DNA from: Chrysochromulina parva
Taxonomy: Eukaryota > Haptophyta > Prymnesiales > Chrysochromulinaceae
Direction: 5' to 3'
Length of the DNA: 13,890 bases
Assembly: GCA_002887195.1 (NCBI GenBank)
Contig: PJAB01001526.1
Span: forward strand, 1 to 13,890
Shown here: positions 1-13,800 of the stretch, piece by piece
Layout: the number at the start of each line of letters is the position of its first letter
Position numbering within the stretch: the stretch's first letter is position 1
The notes under the pieces: model-generated
Told to the model about the DNA's origin: nothing
What the model saw: the letters and a program-made list of their open reading frames with translations, nothing else
Database searches by the model: none
Position numbers and translations under genes: made by a program

Positions 1-117
1 GGAGATTGCCATCTCGGAGCGCGCGGAGCCTCGGCTCGCGGAGATTGCCATCTCGGAGCGCGCGGAGCCTCGGCTCGCGGAGATTGCCATCTCGGAGCGC
101 GCGGAGCCTCGGCTCGC
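1..117. repeat. 39-bp tandem repeat, three copies
   Basis: Three perfect copies of a 39-bp unit begin at 1, 40 and 79, and the array may continue left of the window. The unit begins GGAGATTGCCATCTCGGAGC. Its length is 13 codons, so it is translated as a 13-residue repeat in the minus-strand ORF. Confidence 0.97.
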
Positions 118-1338
118 GGACGGTCGAGGCGCCGTGCTGCCGCCGCGCCAGCCGGAGCCGGCGGCGCCAAACATGCCCTCCCCGGACAGTCGATCGAGGG
201 CGATCAGGAGCGCCGGCGCGGGGCTCGGGGGCATGAGAGGCGGAGCGCCCGAGCTGGCGAGCTCGAGGGCGAGCCGAGCCGAGCCAGCGAACGGGGAGCC
301 GGCGAGGACGGAGCTCTGAGTCACTGGGCGAGCTGTCGAGGACGCGGCGGCGCCGCTCGCCATCATCGAAGCCTCGGCGCGAGATTGCATCTGCGAGGGC
401 GGTCGAGATTGCATCTGCGAGGGCGGTCGAGATTGCATCTGCGAGGGCGGCCGGCGGCCGGCGAACGAGCTGCTCAGCACGGCGCTCGCGCGCATTTCGT
501 GAGCCGTGATTGCCTCCCTCATCAGGTGCGTGCTGCCGCCCGCGTGCACAGTCTCGCCTTCCTCAAAGGCCGGCGGCTCCGCCGCCACCGCCGCCACCGC
601 CGCTGCCACCGCCGCCATCACCGTCTCCGCCGCCACCGCCGCCACCACCGCTGCCACCGCCAACGCCTCCGCCACCGCCTCCTCTTCCGCCGCCGCCGCC
701 ACCGCCGTCCGCGCGTCGAAGCCCTTTGGTAGGACGACGGCGATTGAAGGACGGAGGCTCCGCCATGGCCACGACGGCGGCTCCGACATCGACGCGAGGT
801 TCGCAGCTGCCACGAACGCGCCGGCGCCGGGCGTCCCACCCGTCCCATCACCGGTCTCCTCCGCAGGCCAGTCGCCGTGCGGCCAGAAGAGATCGCTCGG
901 CGTGTACGACGGATGCGTGCTGCGTGCAGCGCTTGCAGCGGCGAGGCGCACGCCGTAGCGAGGCGACGGCGGTGCGCTCATCACGCCCGGAGGCGCAGGT
1001 GGCACGACGGGGCTATTGTAACAGATATCAGACCGACCCATCAGCAGTCGTCGTCGAAACACGTGGTCCGGCATCGGCGCTGGCGCGGCACTTCTTGTCG
1101 TAGTTAACAAGAGCGCGGCGGGCACGTCGATCGACCCGACATGGAGCGCGTTCCGGTCCGCGCTCGCCCAGCCCGTCGTCGAGGTTGGCTGCTGCGGCAT
1201 GGCCAAGCCGAGCTGCTCCCGCTGCCGCCGTTCCGCGACGAACGAATTCACCTCGGCGAGGTCCTGCGTCGCTGAGAGAAGCGCGGATCGGCGCCGAGGA
1301 CGAGCGAAAGACTGCAAAGGGACAGTGAGGGAGTACAT
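1..1338 (-). CDS. Hypothetical low-complexity protein, C-terminus beyond the window
   Basis: In this minus frame no stop occurs from 1362 down to base 1, and a TAG lies at 1365-1363. The first ATG is at 1338-1336, giving 446 codons still open at the left edge. I recognise no family. Visible parts: a moderately ordinary N-terminal ~200 residues, with DLFWPHGDWPAEE near residue 149; an Ala/Val/Glu-rich stretch at about 209-256; an 8-residue unit RPPSQMQS repeated three times at about 296-320; a Ser/Ala/Gly-rich region; and a 13-residue unit containing SRGSARSEMA repeated three times up to the edge. Both minisatellites have lengths divisible by three (24 and 39 bp), and third positions are mostly G/C, which favours real coding. 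The protein is probably disordered. High GC alone can open long false frames, and undetected introns are possible (see 505-528). The next ATG, at 1200, is an alternative start. Confidence 0.55.
   Translation of the reverse strand, partial: MYSLTVPLQSFARPRRRSALLSATQDLAEVNSFVAERRQREQLGLAMPQQPTSTTGWASADRNALHVGSIDVPAALLLTTTRSAAPAPMPDHVFRRRLLMGRSDICYNSPVVPPAPPGVMSAPPSPRYGVRLAAASAARSTHPSYTPSDLFWPHGDWPAEETGDGTGGTPGAGAFVAAANLASMSEPPSWPWRSLRPSIAVVLPKGFDARTAVAAAAEEEAVAEALAVAAVVAAVAAETVMAAVAAAVAAVAAEPPAFEEGETVHAGGSTHLMREAITAHEMRASAVLSSSFAGRRPPSQMQSRPPSQMQSRPPSQMQSRAEASMMASGAAASSTARPVTQSSVLAGSPFAGSARLALELASSGAPPLMPPSPAPALLIALDRLSGEGMFGAAGSGWRGGSTAPRPSASRGSARSEMAISASRGSARSEMAISASRGSARSEMAIS
381..452. repeat. 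24-bp tandem repeat, three copies
   Basis: Copies start at 381, 405 and 429. The unit begins GAGATTGCATCTGCGAGGGC, and the third copy differs in one base near its end. It encodes RPPSQMQS on the minus strand. Its first bases resemble the 39-bp unit at 1-117 (GAGATTGC/CATCT), so the two arrays may share an origin. Confidence 0.95.
570..706. repeat. CCG/CCA trinucleotide-rich low-complexity tract
   Basis: An interrupted run of CCGCCACCG-type triplets. On the plus strand it would read as polyproline. On the minus strand, in the frame of the open ORF, it reads as Ala/Val with scattered Glu. It has no function of its own that I can see. Confidence 0.9.
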
Positions 1339-6314: not shown

Positions 6315-7076
6315 ATGCCCCGGCCGATTTTCACTTACTTCGACTTTGGAGGGCGCGCGTTTGCGGTCCGCGTCGCGCTGTTCAAGGCACTGGGCAAGGA
6401 CGGGTGGGAGGACGAGCGCATCGACGGCCCGACGTTCGCGCGGCGCAAGGCTGCGGGAGAGCTTCCGCTCGGAGCGCTGCCGATGATCACGCTACCTGAC
6501 GGGCTGAAGGTGTCCCAGTCGACTGCTTTGGCGCGTTGGGCCGGCCGGCAGTCAACTCTGTACCCTACCGACCCGACCGCCGCGCTGATCGTCGACTTCG
6601 TCATGGAGACCGCCAACGAGATCCTTGGCAAGTCACCGACGTCGAAGGATCCGGACGAGAAGAAGAAGGCACGAGAGGAGTACTCGCAGTCGGGGTTCAT
6701 GTTCCGCGCGATGAGCGCGCTGGAGGCGAGATACGACGACGCGAGCGGCTTCTGCACCGGCAGCCTCACGATCGCCGACCTCGTTCTGTACGGCTTCGTC
6801 GACATGGTGCTCACGGGCAACTTTGACTATGTGCCTTCCTCGTACATGCTCGCCCACTGATTGCTCCTGATTGATCCTGATCACTCCTGATCGCTCCGGA
6901 TTGCTCATGGTAATCTCTACTGGTCTCTCTGATGGCCTCCCTGATGACCTCCGTGATGGCACCTGATTGACTCCCACATTAGGTACATGGATGGCTACCC
7001 CAAGCTGCTCGCGATGCATGCGGCGGTCAAGAGCGACCCACTGGTCGTCGCGTACTTTGCAGAGTACAAGGACTGA
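6315..7076 (+). CDS. Sigma-like glutathione S-transferase (spliced)
   Basis: Join 6315-6841 and 6983-7076: 207 codons, 206 aa, the usual length for sigma/prostaglandin-D-synthase-like GSTs. These cytosolic enzymes conjugate glutathione to electrophiles or isomerise substrates. N-terminal thioredoxin fold: TYFDFGGRAFAVR, with Tyr8 in the catalytic position; LPMITLPDG with the cis-Pro at 56; QST at 68-70 matching the gamma-glutamyl-binding turn. C-terminal helical domain: FCTGSLTIADLVLY with the N-capping motif and Asp155, then exon 2 supplies YPKLLAMHAAVKSDPLVVAYF. The start at 6315 fits the family; an in-frame ATG at 6084 would add an unrelated leader. Splicing restores SSYMDGYPK across the junction; without it the protein ends LAH. 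Class assignment is by pattern, so substrate is unknown. Confidence 0.88.
6842..6982 (+). other. GST intron with CTGAT repeats and terminal GTACATG duplication
   Basis: A 141-bp GT-AG intron. It begins GTACATGC, and the downstream exon begins GTACATGG, so 7 bp at the donor are repeated directly after the acceptor. CTGAT occurs seven times inside it, mostly in CCTGATTG/CCTGATGA contexts. The splice choice is fixed by frame (TC|G) and by the GST C-terminus. Confidence 0.9.
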
Positions 7077-7505
7077 GTCTGAGATAGCGCTCCCGTTGTG
7101 GGATCTTGGATCCGATCTGGCTCAACGTTCTCGCGGCAGCTCTCCACCATTGACGTTCGTCGGTTGGGCCGTGCCGAGTACGCAGCGTATAGGATGCGAA
7201 CACGCGGGTCGGCTGCGTCGCGTACACGCGAGTATCGCGTGGGTGCATTAACGCAGGGTATGCGTGTAGGTGACATAACAGGATTAAATGCATTTCGCCG
7301 AACAAGTGGTTTCTCGGAGATCGTCGAGATGCCACGAAAGTCGATAATTACAGACACGTGCGCACGCAGTTTGCGCGATGAATCGGCTCAATCGCGCGTG
7401 AAAATTCAACTATAAGGTACGTTAAAACCTAGACGCGTGTGCTTGGTGTGCGGCTGTCAGGCAGGGTTGTCAGGTGTGTCGTGAATGACAAGTCGTTACA
7501 TATCA

Positions 7506-7525
7506 TTGACTTGACTTGACTTGAC
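7506..7525. repeat. TTGAC x4 microsatellite
   Basis: Four perfect tandem copies of TTGAC, followed by AT-rich sequence ACAAACAAAATATAAG. Confidence 0.95.
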
Positions 7526-7556
7526 AAACAAAATATAAGTTGGCCAGGGTACATTG

Positions 7557-7601
7557 TAGGCCAGGTAGGCCAGGTAGGCCAGGTAGGCCAGGTAGGCCAG
7601 G
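7557..7601. repeat. 9-bp minisatellite TAGGCCAGG x5
   Basis: Five perfect tandem copies of TAGGCCAGG begin at 7557, 7566, 7575, 7584 and 7593. A partial related GGCCAGGGTA lies just upstream at about 7542. Confidence 0.95.
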
Positions 7602-7719
7602 TACTGTACAGGCCACAAGGTCAGGGGCGCGCCGCTCAGGCTGTGGGTAGAGCTGTAAACTGAGTCTGGGCACAGCGTGGTCCATGGGCTGAGTTGGTCT
7701 GGGGCGGGAGCTCCAGAGG

Positions 7720-7742
7720 GGTGCGGGGCAGCGCCCCGCACC
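7720..7742. repeat. Perfect GC-rich hairpin, 10-bp stem and 3-nt loop
   Basis: The arms GGTGCGGGGC and GCCCCGCACC are exact reverse complements separated by AGC, followed at once by the palindromic AGAAAATTTTC. Found 170 bp upstream of the BLOS1 ATG. It could be a dispersed-element end, a structured RNA leader or a replication or recombination relic. No homology can be tested here. Confidence 0.85.
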
Positions 7743-7911
7743 AGAAAATTTTCAGGTACTAAGGTCTCCGGACTTTGAAAACTTGATGATCTTTCCAAAC
7801 GTAGAAGAGGCTCGATGGGAGCGCGAGCGAAGCGTGCGTCTCGCGGCGCGTGCGTAGGAACTTGCGTAGGGTCCCTACGTTCACCCTCTCGAGGTTGCCT
7901 ATCTGGGTGAC

Positions 7912-8334
7912 ATGTTCACCGAGCTGGTCCAAGAAAGCCGCGTGCGGCGTGAACGGCTGGCGGCTGACAATGAGGTGCGCAAGCGCGAGGCCATAGCATC
8001 GATCGGCGCGGCCACGGATGCGGCAATGGACTCGATCAATGACGGCTCCGCCGCCGTGTGGCACAATCAGCAGCAACTTGAGGCAGAAGCGCGTCTGCTC
8101 CACCAGAACTCACAGCGTCTCGCCGCCGAAGCATCACAATGGGTGGCCTCCTACCAAGGATTCCACCAGGCGCTCAAAAACCTCGGTGATATCGAGAACT
8201 GGGCGCGGGCGATCGAGTCAGACATGACGTTCATCAGCTCGTCGCTTGACGGACTACAGCAGCGAATGCGGTCGCCTTCTTCGGGCTCGAGTTCTCTTCC
8301 GAGTGCATCGAGCCGAGCAAAAGCAGTGGACTAG
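7912..8334 (+). CDS. BLOC1S1: BLOC-1 subunit 1 (BLOS1/GCN5L1-like)
   Basis: A single-exon gene of 140 aa. In animals BLOS1 is a small coiled-coil subunit of BLOC-1 and BORC, which act in endosome-to-lysosome-related-organelle sorting and lysosome positioning; plants also carry it. The family signature is clear: a charged N-terminal helix with KREAIASIGAATDA, central helices with QQQLEAEARLLHQNSQRLAAEASQW, and the hallmark LGDIENWARAIESDM at 91-105. Length and start fit: the family begins with a short helix some 25 residues before the KREAI motif, as here. The last 20 residues are a Ser-rich tail not expected to be conserved. It is convergent with SURF4. In an alga without lysosome-related organelles in the animal sense, the role is presumably endosomal or vacuolar sorting, which is inference. 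Confidence 0.94.
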   Translation: MFTELVQESRVRRERLAADNEVRKREAIASIGAATDAAMDSINDGSAAVWHNQQQLEAEARLLHQNSQRLAAEASQWVASYQGFHQALKNLGDIENWARAIESDMTFISSSLDGLQQRMRSPSSGSSSLPSASSRAKAVD

Positions 8335-8758
8335 ACATTTCGGCTCTGCTCTGCAGCCCACACAGTGTGAGAGTCTCTCACTCGGATTGTAGTGAGTGTG
8401 ACTGTGGCAAATTGGTACGAGACTCGAGGCGCCTAAGTATCGCAGATCATCTATGAATAGGCGCTAGGCCAACACTCACCATACACGTGGGCACAAAAAA
8501 GGGGTGTTATCGAGTCAAAACTTCACCGCGTGATCTTTCCCCCCTGCGCTGCGGCCGCCGCAACCGCACGAGCGCGTCCCTCCTGTGAGTGTTCCTGTCG
8601 CCGTGTGCCTTGTCAACCCATGCGCGAAACCTAACCAGCGGCTCCTGACGAAACCGGCTCTGAGGTCGAGCAGAGCCACGCGCACGCGACTTTCCACAGC
8701 GCGCCAGCCTCTCGCGTTTCGTAGTCGGTTTCGTCAGCCACTCGGGTCCTTAGTGTAC
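8335..8758. other. Convergent intergenic region with nested inverted repeats
   Basis: These 424 bp lie between the BLOS1 stop and the SURF4 stop and hold both 3' ends. No gene is recognised. A 15-bp palindrome GTGAGAGTCTCTCAC spans 8367-8381. Larger nested inverted repeats lie at 8645-8737 and are listed separately. Confidence 0.6.
8645..8737. repeat. 12-bp inverted repeat enclosing a second hairpin
   Basis: CTGACGAAACCG (8645-8656) is the exact reverse complement of CGGTTTCGTCAG (8726-8737), with 69 bp between. Starting at the last base of the left arm, GGCTCTG (8656-8662) pairs with CAGAGCC (8671-8677) across 8 nt. A transcript could fold into a stem with an internal hairpin, or the arms could be ends of a small inserted element. 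Confidence 0.85.
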
Positions 8759-9939
8759 TTAGTCAGTCGCCTTAGCCTCCATTGCATGCAAGGCGCTGGT
8801 CTCGCCGTGAACCGCCTCGTCTAACGAGAGGCGGCCGGGCCCGAACACCACGAGCTGCAGCAAGGCACCGGCGGTGGACCACTGTTGGAAGAAGAAGTAG
8901 CGCTGGTGCGTCGCGTAGACCCACGCGGGCACCACAGCACCTTCGAAGCCAATCACCTGACGACGGACGCAATCAGACGTCATCAGAGGAGCCATCAGAT
9001 GCAATCAGGATCGAGCACCTCCGAAGCCAATCACCTCGTCGAGCGTGTAGTTGCGATCGGACCAGAGAACGACATACCAGGGATGTGAATAGAGCGCCGC
9101 GAACAGCGTCACCACCGCGAGGATGAAAGCGCACCTGATGAGGGAGCCAATCAGCATGCACTCAGAGAGGCACTCAAAGGCCATCCCCATCGAGCGCGTC
9201 ACCACCGCCGCGAGGAGGATGAGAGAGCCGCCTAATGAGGGAGGCAATCAGCATGCACTCAGGATGAGAGAGCGCGGCACCAGCGCGATCTCAATCCAAT
9301 GACGAGCCAGGCGGTGAGCGGGAGCAACATGACGAGTAGAGCGATCTCCGTCATCGTGGCGGGCAGGTTCTCATGGGTGAATCCGTCGTTCAGCGCCGCG
9401 AACCGCTCGCGCGCCATCTTCTGCGCATAGAAGAGATAGAGAGCCGACAAGCAGCAGCGGCCTGCTAGCTGCAGGCGATCCGTCTCGGTCTGGCGCTCCT
9501 CTTGCGACACGACGGGCAACGCGCTCGAGCGCAGCGTCGCGCGCGTGCTCGACAGCAGGATGAGTAGGCCGCCGATGATGGATACCTCCTCGACGACAAA
9601 CTCTGTGTTGCGCTGCTGCTGGTAGAGGAAGGGATGAGCGGCGCTCCAGGAAATCAGCACGACGCAGCCGATTTGCACGAACCGCGCCTGCCCGGAGAGC
9701 ACGAGGCCGGCGCCGATGCCCTGCACCGCGCAGAAGAGCGCAGGCAGGATGGAGGACGCTGGTTCGCCGAATCCGACCGTCCGCATCGAGTCTGCTTGGC
9801 CAGTGTAGTCACTGGCGATACGCACAAAGTCGTCCACGAAGGTACCGACGATCAGCGCGCGCGAAAGCGCCTGCAAGGGCCGCCACGTGCGCTTCACATG
9901 GGGCCTGTCGAGGAGGGAGGTGAAGGCCTGGTGCGCCAT
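8759..9939 (-). CDS. SURF4: SURF4/Erv29-like ER cargo receptor (three exons)
   Basis: Minus-strand join 9939-9281, 9134-9035, 8956-8759: 319 codons, 318 aa (human SURF4 is 269). SURF4 is a multi-pass receptor that packages soluble cargo into COPII vesicles and cycles between ER and ERGIC/Golgi. Landmarks: ALIVGTFVDDFVRI near residue 28, EEVSIIGGLLILLSSTR near 117 (family GGGLLLLLAESR), LQLAGRCCLSALYLF near 157, the hydrophobic segment EIALLVMLLPLTAWLVIGL, FILAVVTLFAALYSH from exon 2, and the C-terminal FFFQQWSTAGALL...GPGRLSLDEA from exon 3 (family GPGGVSMDE). Each exon alone is incomplete; splicing restores frame at both junctions (RWC|AFIL, LDE|VIGF). The C-terminus EAKATD lacks the di-lysine retrieval signal seen in animal SURF4. 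The start codon lies in a 41-bp duplication. Confidence 0.94.
8957..9034 (-). other. SURF4 intron 2, flanked by a 21-bp direct repeat
   Basis: A 78-bp GT-AG intron. Its first 21 bases (GTGATTGGCTTCG...GGTGCT) match the first 21 bases of exon 3 with one mismatch. Two splice pairs are therefore almost equivalent: GTGATTGG donor with CGTCAG acceptor gives VIGFEGA, while a donor 15 nt later with acceptor after CGAAG gives VIGFGGA. CTGAT occurs four times inside. Confidence 0.88.
9135..9280 (-). other. SURF4 intron 1 with internal 97-bp duplication
   Basis: A 146-bp GT-AG intron (donor GTGCCG, acceptor CCCTCATCAG). The segment GAGTGCATGCTGATTG occurs twice, 97 bp apart (plus positions around 9150 and 9247). 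After the first copy comes a decayed imitation of the exon 2 start (CTCTCTCATCCTCCTCGCGG, compare exon CTTTCATCCTCGCGG). The distal acceptor is chosen because only it continues the SURF4 frame with AFILAVVTLF. Confidence 0.88.
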
Positions 9940-9980
9940 TGGGGCCTGTCGAGGAGGGAGGTGAAGGTCTGGTGCGCCAT
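9894..9980 (-). other. Possible upstream ORF overlapping the SURF4 start
   Basis: The duplicated ATG at 9980 opens a 28-codon frame that begins MAHQTFTSLLDRP, leaves the SURF4 frame at the duplication junction and ends at TGA 9896-9894, past the main ATG at 9939. If both ATGs are in the mRNA, translation of SURF4 would need leaky scanning, or transcription must start between them. Confidence 0.5.
9899..9980. repeat. 41-bp tandem duplication covering the SURF4 start codon
   Basis: Two copies, 9899-9939 and 9940-9980, differ by one base. Each carries an ATG on the minus strand with the same following codons. Because 41 is not a multiple of three, the outer ATG at 9980 reads a different frame after one unit and stops at 9894. 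Confidence 0.96.
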
Positions 9981-10482: not shown

Positions 10483-13161
10483 GCGACGAAGCCGTATGTG
10501 GCTTGTACTCGAGGCCCATCGCTTGCAGCGTGCGTGTAAGGGCGTCCGCCCGCGCGAGCGATTGCGGCGTCGGCGGCGGCGTCGTCGGCGGCGATGACGT
10601 TGTCGACGACGTTGACGACGGCGGCGAATGAAGCGGCTGCGGCAGCAAAAGCGGCGGTAATCGCGGAGACTCTCCTGGGATGGTCGTCGCCATCGCCTCT
10701 GCGTGCCTAGGAGGTGAGCGTGGTGGCAAGTTCATTTCGAGCTCGCTTTCCGTGCCGTAGCTGCTCCCGTTAGAGGGGATGCCAGGTCGAGCAATGAATT
10801 GGTCCAGGTGGCCCATGGCTGAGGACGCCGCGGCCCGCGAGGGGGATGCCGCTCTCCAAAGTGGTGCCGCAGCGCGCGAAGGCTCTGGCGGGCCCGCGGC
10901 TCTGACAACGGCTGACATGCTTTGGGTGGAGTGCGGGGCGGCGCCCCCGGCAGCGATCGCGAGGGCGGCACTGTCCGTAGGCAGAGGTGCACTGTCCCGA
11001 GGCGGACCGGTACCCCTCGGCCTCACTGTCGCTTTGAATCGGGAAAGTAGGATCTGACGCCTAGATCGCTTATCAATCGGCACCATCTCGACCCCCAACG
11101 CATCCGGCCCAGGCGCCCTCGCTGCCCTAACGGGCCGAGCAGTACTCGCGCCCGTGTCCTCGACGTCATTCGGGTCCGAGGCGTCGTTCCGAGCAGTACT
11201 CGCGCCCGAGTCGTCGACGTCATTCGGGCCCGAGGCATCGCTGGTGCGATGCCCGTCCCTCAAGTGGTCCCCGTTTTGTGACTCCTCTGGGGGAGTAGAG
11301 TTCGGGTTAGGGTTAGGGTGGTCCCCGTCATGTGACTCCTCTTGGGGAGTCGAGTTCCTCGAGTAGAGGGCGTGGAGGGCGAACGATCGCTCGTACTTGA
11401 GTCGCTCCTTCTCCCGTGCGAGCTGAGCGTTGCGCCGGTGCGAGTTCCTACGCGCACACCCAACAGCCAAGCACGATCGGTCAGTGAAGCCAAGGACGGT
11501 CGGTCAGTGAAGCCACCGGCGCGTGCTCATTCAGCTTCAAAAGGCACAGGGAAGGCTCACCAGAGCAACAGTGCAGACACAGTGAGGACCGAGGCCGCGA
11601 AGGCCAACGAGGCGCCCAAGACGGCGTAGTTGTCGTCGAGTGGGCTACCCTCTCTCGTGGGCGCTGTGCTGGGCGCTGTCTGGGGACTCGGAGGTGGACT
11701 TGGAGCGTCGGGCTCAAAGTCCGGGAACGGCACCAATCCCGTATCCTTACCAGGCACAAGTGAAGCAGCGAAACAGGTGGGTTTGTCCGCATGGAGGGAC
11801 AGCGCCTTCGAGCCGAACGACGCGTCGCCCATGAAAGTACCGCTCACGAGCACACGTCCACTGCCGGTGTAGTGTGCGATGCCAAGGCCGTACCGGAAGC
11901 CTGGTTCGCTGGACGTGCTACTAGCCCGGACAACCCAGTCAATCGCGCCCGACGCCGTCACGTGCATCACAAAAGCGTCGTAGGCGTTGTTGTCCGTAAC
12001 GTATTCGTACATTTGAAACCACGCCGTGCCAGCAAAGGAGCCGATCACGAAAGCGCCGCCCACGCCATCGTGCGCGATGCCGCGGCCTTCGTCGTTGGAC
12101 GCACCGCCCGCCTGTATGGCCCAGTCGATGACGCCCGATGCCGTCACGTGCATCACGAAAGCGTCGGCGTTGCCGCGGCTTACAAGCGTCGTCGAGCCGA
12201 ACGAAGCCTTGCCCATGAAGTCGCCCGTGACGAGAGCACCCCCTGCGCCATCGTGCGCGATGCCGTGCCCATGGTTTGAACCCATGCCCCCCGCCTGGAC
12301 GGCCCAGCCGATGGCCCCCGACGCCGTCATGTGCATCACGAAGATATCTAACGTGCCGGTGCTCGCGAGTGACGTCGAGCCGAACGATGTTTCGCCCCTA
12401 AAGTCGCCCGTCACGAAAGCACCCCCAGCGCTATCGTGCGCGATGCCGTAGTACTCGATGCTGTTGCCTGCTTCATCGAACTCGCCGCCCGCCTGGACGG
12501 CCCAGTCGATGACGCCCGACGCTGTCACGTGCATCACAAAGGCGCCGTAACTGCCGCGGCTTACGAGTGTCGTCGAGCCGAACGAAGCATTGCCCCTGAA
12601 GTCGCCCGTGACGAGAGCACCACCCATGCCATCTTGCGCGATATCGTAGCCATGGTCTGGGCCCATGCCGCCCGCCTGCACGGCCCAGTCGATGGTCCCA
12701 GACGCCGTCACGTGCATCACGAACGCATCGTACACGAACCCTGAAGCTTCGAGCACGGTCGAGCCGAACAATGCCTTGCCAGCGAAGTACCCTGCCACGA
12801 AAGCACCCCCGGCGTCATCAGACGCTATGCTGTAGCCTACGCATTCGGATTCTCCACCAGCCTTCACACCCCAGTCAATTGTGCCAGACGCCGTCACGTG
12901 CATCACGAAAGTGCTCATACTCCTGCTGGATAGGAGGGACGTCGAGCCGAACAATCCCTTATCGCTGAACCAGCCTGTCACGAAAGAACCGCCTGCGCCA
13001 TCGGGGGCGATGGTACTGCCAGAGCCGGCCGACTGGACAGCCCATGCGGGAGCCTGGACAGCCGTCGTCGCGGGAGGTTCCAATCGTACGGGTGGCGGAG
13101 GCAGCGGCACGGTTTCTGGTGGTTGCACGAACATTAACGGCACCATCATGAGCACGATCAT
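10466..13161 (-). CDS. Seven-bladed SBBP-type beta-propeller type I membrane protein (two exons)
   Basis: Minus-strand join 13161-11561 and 11447-10466: 861 codons, 860 aa. Start: ATG at 13161, followed by a short hydrophobic stretch MIVLMMVPLMFV that could be a weak signal peptide, then a Pro-rich linker. Seven repeat units follow, marked by Trp at 40, 97, 159, 220, 286, 347 and 409, each with DGxGGxxVTGxFxGxAxFGST and FVMHVTASGxIDW. This is the SBBP beta-propeller repeat pattern, common in bacterial surface proteins; the last strand CFAASLVPG at about 463-471 likely closes the ring. A Pro/Ser-rich stalk (480-508) leads to one TM helix at about 512-533, then a basic stop-transfer NSHRR and a 326-residue tail with a charged helix, 18-residue repeats and Pro/Ser-rich low complexity. 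Probably a cell-surface or vesicle protein; ligand unknown. Splicing joins LW|NSHRR in frame. Confidence 0.86.
11137..11357. repeat. Two 54-bp-period coding repeats with a telomere-like spacer
   Basis: Array 1: 11137-11190 and 11191 to about 11240, 54 bp apart. Array 2: 11264-11303 and 11318-11357, also 54 bp apart, separated by TTAGGG-type sequence (GGGTTAGGGTTAGGG at 11304-11318). In the propeller protein's cytoplasmic tail these read as four consecutive ~18-residue units: two NSTPxEESxxGDH units and two DASxPNDVxDxGASTA units. Confidence 0.92.
11448..11560 (-). other. Intron of the propeller gene
   Basis: A 113-bp GT-AG intron with a consensus-like donor CTG|GTGAGC, placed directly after the transmembrane helix codons; the unspliced frame meets TGA at the donor. 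It contains two tandem 23-bp units (TGGCTTCACTGACCGA...), each with CACTGAC, a good branch-site candidate. Unlike the GST and SURF4 introns, its start does not resemble the downstream exon. Confidence 0.9.
11800..13060. repeat. Tandem ~170-200 bp repeats encoding propeller blades
   Basis: The plus-strand segment GCCGTCACGTGCATCACGAA and close variants recur at each blade. Blade lengths are 57, 62, 61, 66, 61 and 62 codons. The nucleotide similarity between central blades is high enough to suggest fairly recent duplication or gene conversion. Confidence 0.85.
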
Positions 13162-13800
13162 GTGTGGTCTCCGTCTCGCTGCAACAAGAACCCAGAAAGG
13201 AAACGCGTCTCTTGAAATTGATTTAGAACTTCATCCAGAAAGTCAGTTTCGTCGCGGTGCTCCCGCGCTCAAGTTCAAGTTCAAGTTCAAGTTCAAGTTC
13301 AACAACTTGAACTCCCGCGCTCACCACTAGAACTTTGATATAGAACTTGAGTGAGAACCCAACGCGCAAATAGTTTGGCATGGATGGGGAGGATTCTTTT
13401 GGATTGACACATGGATCCGATGATACGCCCAGACCCCACCTTACTCCTTAGCGCACCTTCCTGACTTGGACGCTCTCTGAGCGGATTTTGGGTCAATATT
13501 TTGGGTAATAAACAAGTCAGAGCCGATCTAGTACCCAGTCCCAGACGCGCGGTTAGTTTTAAGTTTAAAGGACACCGCGGGTGTAATGACAGAGAGGCGG
13601 TACCATAGTAATCATTTCCACAGACACCAAGACACGTCATCGAGAGCAACGCTGGAAGGATGTAGATTGTTGCGAGAGCGTGGCCTTATCGAGCTGCACC
13701 ATCTCGCCTGCAACCCCGCCATTGCTGCGAGAGGCGCCCGAGCCCGCAGCGAGTGGCCGCTGCCGCTGCACAGGGGACGAACCCTCGTCCCCCTTGATTA
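13162..13800. other. Intergenic region upstream of the propeller gene
   Basis: These 639 bp are AT-richer than flanking genes and hold no recognised gene. On the minus strand TTTCCTTTCTGGGTTCTTGTTGCAG ends near 13180, a good 3' splice-site look-alike just upstream of the ATG, so a 5' exon cannot be excluded. The AAGTTC array lies at 13271-13300. A plus-strand ATG frame of 71 codons at 13586-13801 has basic, low-information composition and is not called. Confidence 0.5.
13271..13300. repeat. AAGTTC x5 hexanucleotide repeat
   Basis: Five perfect copies, followed by AACAACTTGAACT, so the array end forms an inverted repeat (AGTTCAA-CAAC-TTGAACT). The 12-mer CTCCCGCGCTCA flanks the array as a direct repeat on both sides, as if the array sits in a duplicated target. 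Confidence 0.93.

What the first reader, a model, noticed from the sequence alone, without database searches (positions are those of the whole stretch)
6842..9280. Introns whose 5' ends duplicate the start of the next exon: signature of recent intron gain
In the GST intron, GTACATG is repeated at the start of the intron and of the next exon (7 nt). In SURF4 intron 2 the repeat is 21 nt with one mismatch. In SURF4 intron 1 a gapped match (GTGCCGCGCTCTCTCATCCT against GTGCGCTTTCATCCT) is seen. All three interiors carry CTGATTG/CTGATGG motifs (7, 4 and 2 CTGAT). The two other introns of the window lack both properties. Duplication of an AGGT-containing exon segment, or insertion of introner elements with target-site duplication, are both known routes to new introns.
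Basis: partly seen in the sequence, partly recalled or inferred. Interest (0 to 1): 0.8.

Follow-up and report, generated by a model that had tools for sequence, protein, structure and literature searches.

The report
New introns with long target duplications
A marine alga-like genome carries thousands of short repeated intron pieces, and where one lands it copies roughly 10 to 50 letters of the gene beside it, so that piece and copy can be spliced out together; the copies are several times longer than those reported for intron-making elements.

Summary
The finding is real and much larger than the window. The GST and SURF4 introns belong to a dispersed family ending CTGATTGCCTCCCTCATCAG: 3,366 matches with up to 3 mismatches in the 45 Mb genome, 0 for the reversed pattern. 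A second, unrelated family (core GCATGCAAGTGCTCACCACGGCGCC) has 874 matches.

In loci chosen by element sequence, the downstream exon is repeated at the intron's 5' end in 45 of 76 family-1 loci (swapped pairs 3 of 754) and in 26 of 36 testable family-2 loci, of 40 fetched (0 of 347). Clean repeats run 10-48 nt, medians 23.5 and 23, alike in both families. Introners and Daphnia neo-introns in the papers seen have 3-9 and 4-12 bp.

Splicing from repeat start to element AG keeps the coding frame in 42 of 54 (chance 18).

Anatomy (strong): the element brings branch point and acceptor; the duplicated target brings the donor. Mechanism (inferred): capture of intron copies at staggered breaks; RNA-primed insertion is the main rival. 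In the window only SURF4 intron 2's repeat beats chance by itself. No RNA evidence; organism haptophyte-like.

The parts
6315..6841 (+). GST gene, exon 1 (from the ATG assumed)
   Evidence: reading frame; Pfam GST_C_3 on joined exons; homologues P0037-P0044
6842..6982 (+). GST intron, family-1 element with 7 CTGAT
   Evidence: matches elsewhere in the genome (query 13-159)
6842..6848 (+). 5' copy of possible target duplication GTACATG, donor GT
   Evidence: weak alone (4% of swapped pairs reach 7)
6983..6989 (+). exon copy of GTACATG
6983..7076 (+). GST exon 2
   Evidence: reading frame
8759..8956 (-). SURF4 exon 3
   Evidence: reading frame, Pfam SURF4 on joined exons, alignment with relatives
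8957..9034 (-). SURF4 intron 2: 21-nt target copy plus 57-nt family-1 element
   Evidence: (matches of about 60 nt at 90-95% elsewhere)
9014..9034 (-). 5' copy of target duplication GTGATTGGCTTCGGAGGTGCT, donor GT
   Evidence: 20 of 21 identical to exon 3 start
8936..8956 (-). exon copy of the same 21 nt
8957..9013 (-). family-1 element, 3' end CGTCCGTCGTCAG
9035..9134 (-). SURF4 exon 2
9135..9280 (-). SURF4 intron 1: decayed two-unit array of exon copy plus short family-1 element
   Evidence: two element ends, internal exon-like copy
9281..9939 (-). SURF4 exon 1 (from the second of two ATG copies)
   Evidence: P0004 and P0005 read through its end into intron 1
9899..9980 (-). plain 41-nt tandem duplication (1 difference) at the SURF4 start, no element inside; P0004 and P0005 lack the second copy
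   Evidence: proteins
506..525 (+). another family-1 3' end (GTGATTGCCTCCCTCATCAG) followed by GT, gene unknown, no repeat found

Best explanation
These introns are insertions of short repeated intron pieces (introner-like elements). Anatomy, well supported: each insertion duplicates about 10 to 50 nt of the exon it enters; the first copy becomes the start of the intron and gives the GT donor; the inserted piece gives branch point, pyrimidine tract and AG; removal of first copy plus piece leaves the mRNA as before. Mechanism, inferred: two nicks 10-50 nt apart on opposite strands leave a staggered break; both overhangs are filled in, which makes the duplication; a copy of an existing intron's 3' part is captured or copied into the gap, using a few bases of microhomology at its 5' junction. 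Of such insertions, mainly those that can be spliced exactly survive in exons, so good intron ends become ever more common donors. Likelihoods: anatomy about 0.9, break-capture mechanism about 0.5.
For: Repeat excess: 45/76 against 3/754 swapped; 26/36 against 0/347; in the match-chosen sample 34 of 67 clusters score 12 or more against 4/335 shifted and 1/315 swapped; under a rule that assumes no splice site, 32 of 40 family-2 loci have flanking repeats scoring 12 or more against 0 of 40 with the right side shuffled. Clean lengths are continuous, 10-48 nt in family 1 (54 single-copy) and 11-47 in family 2 (24), medians 23.5 and 23, p=0.43. Frame kept 42/54; acceptor +1 7/54, +2 5/54; open 33/54 if spliced against 4/54 if retained. 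Target and element lengths are inversely related (rho -0.35, p=0.009 for all 54; -0.45, p=0.001 for 49 with elements under 100 nt), as if total intron size were selected. Microhomology at the 5' junction 2.1 nt against 0.5 (41 recipients) and 1.9 against 0.4 (18). A C967 intron recurs in C622 and C1551 from its 5' end and truncated in C173, C705 and SURF4 intron 2. 22 of 76 loci have two or more element ends within 150 nt. Tandem duplications of 15-60 nt without element-like words: 77 regions in 212 kb, 0 in a shuffle. In print, breaks with 46-nt overhangs give tandem duplications (PMC5730883, passages).
Against: No enzyme, break or intermediate is shown. Thousands of copies of two cores suggest a more efficient route than chance capture. 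In family 1 the 3' end is exactly AG, which RNA copying would explain directly (selection and my search pattern also force it). Copies in C622 and C1551 begin exactly at the donor intron's 5' splice site, as an excised-intron template would. The microhomology controls are one-sided, a fair null is about twice the control value, and one recipient (L120, 10 nt) is an artefact of a repeat that runs into the element. 40 of 76 family-1 loci have no repeat of 12 or more; I assume they are older or different. 12 of 54 fail the frame test and 21 of 54 have a stop in the joined flanks; part of the length compensation may come from where the repeat boundary is drawn.
Confidence: 0.52

Rival explanations
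1. RNA route: an excised intron RNA, ending at AG, is reverse transcribed at a nick next to the GT (target-primed, as in LINEs and SINEs); a second nick at variable distance makes the target duplication and the 5' end is often truncated.
For: Constant 3' end and variable 5' end in family 1; variable target length; 5' truncation series from one donor intron and two copies that begin exactly at its 5' splice site; messy 5' and clean 3' junctions.
Against: Only 5 RVT_1 matches in the assembly (assemblies may lose repeats). Family-2 copies L112, L116 and L130 end after GGCGCC without the AG tail, and in L109 the target copy supplies the acceptor. I noticed no poly-A tail in the copies printed; no test was run.
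Confidence: 0.27
2. Non-autonomous DNA transposons moved by an unknown enzyme that cuts with 10-50 nt staggers.
For: High copy number and two defined cores. Most introner families in the survey show at least one DNA-transposon mark (PMC9860276, results section read).
Against: I know of no DNA transposase with such long and variable duplications (recall). By eye I saw no terminal inverted repeats in the consensus. Element ends vary at the 5' side in family 1 and at both sides in family 2.
Confidence: 0.13
3. Tandem duplication of AGGT-containing exon pieces makes the introns (or overwrites the 5' ends of old introns); the shared 3' part is older intron sequence.
For: AG precedes the donor in 27 of 54 (7% before any GT in the sample); tandem duplications are common in this genome.
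Against: Thousands of places share element sequence. Relatives have a single uninterrupted copy at the SURF4 sites. Donor-recipient chains show movement between contigs.
Confidence: 0.06
4. Chance similarity or assembly artefact.
For: The GST repeat alone is within chance at 4%.
Against: Controls. Protein clusters from other records read from the exon into the same intron starts (P0005, 48 members; P0038, 61 members).
Confidence: 0.02

Closest known systems
Introners (survey of Gozashti et al. 2022, PMC9860276; results section and TSD-method section read, other passages by term search)
   Same: Families of similar introns inserted in genes of aquatic protists; element carries the acceptor and the target duplication supplies the donor, one of the geometries described there; copy numbers of hundreds to thousands.
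   Different: Duplications of about 10-48 nt and variable, against the 3-9 bp cited there; no terminal inverted repeats seen by eye; tandem arrays; low-complexity CTGAT units, a kind of family that survey filtered out. Its Chrysochromulina example has 4 bp and carries its own donor.
Introns gained at staggered double-strand breaks in Daphnia (PMC4202315, passages read)
   Same: Direct repeats of adjacent exon at the other end of the intron, internal repeats, repeated rounds.
   Different: Repeats of 4-12 bp there; in the passages I saw those introns are not described as one dispersed family.
Tandem genomic duplication of AGGT segments (review PMC3443670, passages read)
   Same: Duplicated exon supplies a splice site; mRNA unchanged.
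   Different: Here the acceptor and branch point come from an inserted element, not from the second AGGT.
Amoebophrya introner elements (PMC7789003, passages read)
   Same: Repeated introns flanked by direct repeats in a marine protist.
   Different: 3-5 nt direct repeats and 8-20 nt inverted repeats there; mostly among non-canonical introns.
Direct repeats near intron borders (PMC11782384, abstract and passages read)
   Same: Reports repeats of 4-30 bp around introns of many kinds.
   Different: Mean 11.4 bp, similarity from 71%, found by hand; not a dispersed element family.

Membership tests
Introners | group of introns with similar sequence at many unrelated sites | tested here: met
   3,366 and 874 matches, 0 in reversed-pattern controls
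Introners | similarity reaches near both splice boundaries | tested here: inconclusive
   It reaches the acceptor; the 5' 10-48 nt are local target sequence, so the element itself ends short of the donor
Introners | insertion into exons making spliceable introns | tested here: met
   Frame test 42/54; coding statistics only, no RNA evidence
Introners (DNA-transposon type) | short target duplication, 3-9 bp | tested here: not met
   10-48 nt, continuous, where a repeat is detectable; repeats under about 10 nt could not be told from chance
Introners (DNA-transposon type) | terminal inverted repeats | tested here: inconclusive
   Not seen by eye in the consensus; no separate computation
[quoted passage not shown]
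Staggered-break intron gain | absence of the intron in sister alleles | tested here: inconclusive
   Uninterrupted homologues at 73-77% for SURF4 and about 55% for GST, but they may be transcripts or virus genes; no sister allele seen
Target-primed retroelements | constant 3' end, variable 5' truncation, variable target duplication | tested here: inconclusive
   Fits family 1, chosen by its 3' end; family 2 has variable 3' ends
Target-primed retroelements | reverse transcriptase that acts on it | tested here: inconclusive
   5 RVT_1 matches, none linked to the element
Tandem genomic duplication | intron is only the duplicated segment between two AGGT | tested here: not met
   A shared element lies between the copies

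The most novel reading that the evidence does not exclude
Intron pieces can spread as selfish sequences with no transposase of their own. Ordinary staggered-break repair copies them into exons and splicing is the only trait that keeps them, so good branch-point-plus-acceptor pieces multiply because they make their own insertion harmless. Two unrelated cores with the same duplication-length profile would be two winners of that process.
Probability: 0.3. Interest if true: 0.87.

Novelty: new variant of a known kind. Interest (0 to 1): 0.7.

Why it matters
How introns arise is an old open question with two leading answers: mobile elements and break repair. Here the marks of both lie in the same introns, in a family with thousands of copies, and often well preserved (in 23 of 54 single-copy cases the two target copies are still identical). 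The long target copies allow each gain to be ranked by age and show the former empty site, so a long-read population survey of this lineage could settle the mechanism.

Tried and rejected
Tried without result: family-1 pattern in viral contigs, 0 matches. Rfam on the window at gathering scores, 0 matches. A scan for repeats upstream of NN|NN sites was muddied by minisatellites and by element arrays on both strands: duplications were most frequent at AG|GT (58 per 1000 sites), but AG|GC had 38, and the nine other site types 9 to 24, so its element-free part is not clean. A scan of left-maximal repeats found 100 pairs with and 163 without the family-1 core, and the start of the repeat was scattered, not fixed at the AG, because arrays and decayed copies break the match; I did not use it as support. 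All-against-all comparison of introns gave 525 hits, mostly trivial array matches, and its output was cut; I used only its consensus, lengths and a few pairs.

Considered and rejected: element inserted between two pre-existing exon copies (homologues have one copy at SURF4); simple reverse splicing (most of the 84 introns with repeats do not carry a donor intron's 5' end). A first idea that insertion is strictly specific for AG|GT was dropped: the family-1 pattern itself contained GT, so the 45 loci chosen with it start with GT by construction; of the 39 others 30 begin GT and 5 GC. In family 2, of 32 looser repeats 17 start within 3 nt before an acceptor found by my rule, 6 start 3-7 nt behind it and 9 are not aligned to one (my count from the table).

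Mended on checking: earlier figures of 52 and 53 nt as longest repeats came from arrays or from repeats that run into the element (L056, L120, L131); clean maxima are 48 and 47. The count of 241 tandem repeats (2 in shuffles) includes element arrays; without element-like words 77 of 140 regions remain.

Not done: own-genome search for empty paralogous sites. The query was built but not sent.
Full report
What was checked in the window. The window is a whole contig (C1526, 13,890 bases) of a 45 Mb genome in 2,199 contigs. Taken alone, only the 20-of-21 repeat of SURF4 intron 2 beats chance clearly. The 7-nt GST repeat is reached by 30 of 754 swapped pairs. The match at the start of SURF4 intron 1 is not significant, but that intron holds two element ends and an internal exon-like copy (local score 36; shuffled mean 17, maximum 36 of 500), so I read it as a decayed two-unit array.

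The introns belong to a family. A DNA search of the own genome with 6842-9280 found 75 matches besides the window itself, all in or overlapping the three introns, and a few places (on C142, C1007 and C1521) matched both the GST and a SURF4 intron. The 3' end CTGATTGCCTCCCTCATCAGG has 3,366 matches with up to 3 mismatches and 0 for the reversed pattern; an exact, partly degenerate form ending in GT has 539 against 0. The conserved 3' end has a branch-point-like CTGAT, a pyrimidine stretch and AG; upstream lie 10-11 nt CTGAT units, often alike within one locus. Calling CTGAT a branch point rests on general knowledge of splicing, not on a test here.

Long target duplications. One search listed 100 places; I left out 11 already held, merged neighbours and fetched the remaining 76 loci. 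I asked whether the sequence after the element's AG recurs upstream. A score of 10 or more was found in 45 of 76, against 3 of 754 swapped pairs; 12 or more in 36 of 76 against 1 of 754. In the larger sample chosen by similarity to the window (71 clusters, 67 testable), 34 score 12 or more, against 4 of 335 shifted and 1 of 315 swapped. Together 84 introns have a repeat of score 10 or more, 45 and 39 from the two samples. Among the 54 single-copy ones (34 and 20) the length runs from 10 to 48 nt, median 23.5, middle half 17-29; shorter repeats could not be told from chance. The two copies are 95.4% identical, 23 of 54 without any difference. Element and repeat lengths compensate each other, as expected if total intron size (median 81.5 nt) is under selection.

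A second family. Reading the repeats showed an unrelated element, GCATGCAAGTGCTCACNACGGCGCC followed by a CT-rich stretch and usually CCCCACAG: 874 matches with up to 1 mismatch, reversed control 0. I fetched 40 loci, the first of the list, two neighbours merged. 36 gave an acceptor by my rule and 26 of those had a repeat of score 10 or more, against 0 of 347 swapped; one of the 26 (L117) is a GAG-rich run. With a looser rule that does not assume splice sites, 32 of 40 have flanking repeats of 12 or more, against 0 of 40 when the right side is shuffled. Leaving out L120 and L131, whose repeats run into the element, lengths are 11-47 nt, median 23, not different from family 1 (p=0.43; with them 25.5 and p=0.20). 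Exceptions are informative: in L109 the repeated 27-28 nt lie before the splice site and supply the acceptor; in L112, L116 and L130 the element stops after GGCGCC; in L119, L124 and L135 the repeat does not start with GT. So the duplication looks like a property of insertion, and splicing decides what survives.

They behave as introns. For the 54 single-copy family-1 cases, joining from repeat start to element AG keeps the best coding frame in 42 (chance 18). Shifting the acceptor by 1 or 2 gives 7 and 5, removing only the element 16, and no removal 17. The frame is open in 33 if spliced and in 4 if retained; the element's strand is the better coding strand in 40 of 54. This is coding statistics, not RNA evidence; 12 of 54 do not fit. 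AG stands before the donor in 27 of 54, against 7% before any GT in the sample.

Recent movement. Introns share donor-specific sequence. The C967 intron begins with 29 nt of its own next exon; the same 29 nt plus element stand in C622 (three tandem units, two of them with 2 changes in the 29 nt) and in C1551, and shorter parts in C173, C705 and SURF4 intron 2. At 5' junctions the exon and the preceding bases of the best-matching donor agree for 2.1 nt on average against 0.5 in swapped pairs (41 of 110 recipients had such a donor). The donor is a proxy, the control is one-sided and one recipient (L120) is an artefact, so the excess is smaller than it looks. In 22 of 76 loci two or more element ends stand within 150 nt. 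Close relatives' SURF4 (73-77% identity) and several GST relatives (about 55%) are uninterrupted at these sites. P0011 (54%) sits on a 7,981 bp contig and P0039 on a 12,715 bp contig, but P0039 and P0041 have lysine-rich starts and could be virus genes, and short contigs could be transcripts. Clusters P0004, P0005, P0037 and P0038 from other records read from the exon into the same intron starts, which speaks against an artefact of this assembly.

How it works. Shown: two element families, a long and variable copy of the target beside many of their members, frame-preserving geometry. Inferred: staggered breaks or paired nicks fill in to make the copy, and an intron 3' part is captured. Support: the length range, its sameness in two unrelated families, variable element ends, microhomology, arrays, and the many plain tandem duplications of this genome (77 regions of period 15-60 without element-like words in 212 kb, 0 in a shuffle). 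One is a 41-nt duplication at the SURF4 start that P0004 and P0005 lack. Experimental breaks with 46-nt overhangs give tandem duplications in mouse cells (PMC5730883, passages). The main rival is target-primed reverse transcription of excised introns; it explains the constant AG end in family 1 and two copies that start at a donor's 5' splice site, but the family-2 ends and the few reverse transcriptase matches (5) speak against it. Neither is proven.

Comparison. Introners in print have 3-9 bp duplications as cited in PMC9860276, Amoebophrya 3-5 nt (PMC7789003), Daphnia neo-introns 4-12 bp (PMC4202315). PMC11782384 reports repeats up to 30 bp, mean 11.4, at lower similarity. In the listings of my searches and in the passages that I opened, I saw no introner family with duplications of this length; the library holds open papers only and I did not open most of those listed. 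The survey in PMC9860276 included ocean metagenome assemblies and removed low-complexity families (passages), so this genome may have been in it.

Noticed in passing
G000 genome-wide; L105-L144: A second introner-like family (GCATGCAAGTGCTCACCACGGCGCC core, 874 matches), unrelated in sequence, with the same long target duplications.
   Followed up: yes
window 9899-9980 (-): 41-nt tandem duplication covering the SURF4 start codon; near-identical proteins from other records (P0004, P0005) lack the second copy.
   Followed up: partly
L120: Hybrid intron: family-1 CTGAT units run straight into the family-2 core at a shared TTGCATGC.
   Followed up: no
L025, reverse-strand positions about 2136-2750: About a dozen tandem copies of a 54-nt unit, exon-like piece plus element, in one cluster.
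   Followed up: no
window 1-120 and 397-460: Tandem repeats of about 39 nt and about 24 nt, three copies each, near the contig start.
   Followed up: no
window 7555-7610: Tandem CAGGTAGGC-like nonamers between the GST and GCN5L1 genes.
   Followed up: no
window 7912-8331 (+): GCN5L1-like gene in one open frame between GST and SURF4 (PF06320, E 2.5e-30).
   Followed up: no
window 11560-13230 (-): 557-aa frame with SBBP beta-propeller repeats (PF06739, E 6.1e-16).
   Followed up: no
window 11304-11318: Telomere-like GGGTTAGGGTTAGGG inside a long open frame of the other strand.
   Followed up: no
window 13270-13302: Run of AAGTTC hexamers.
   Followed up: no
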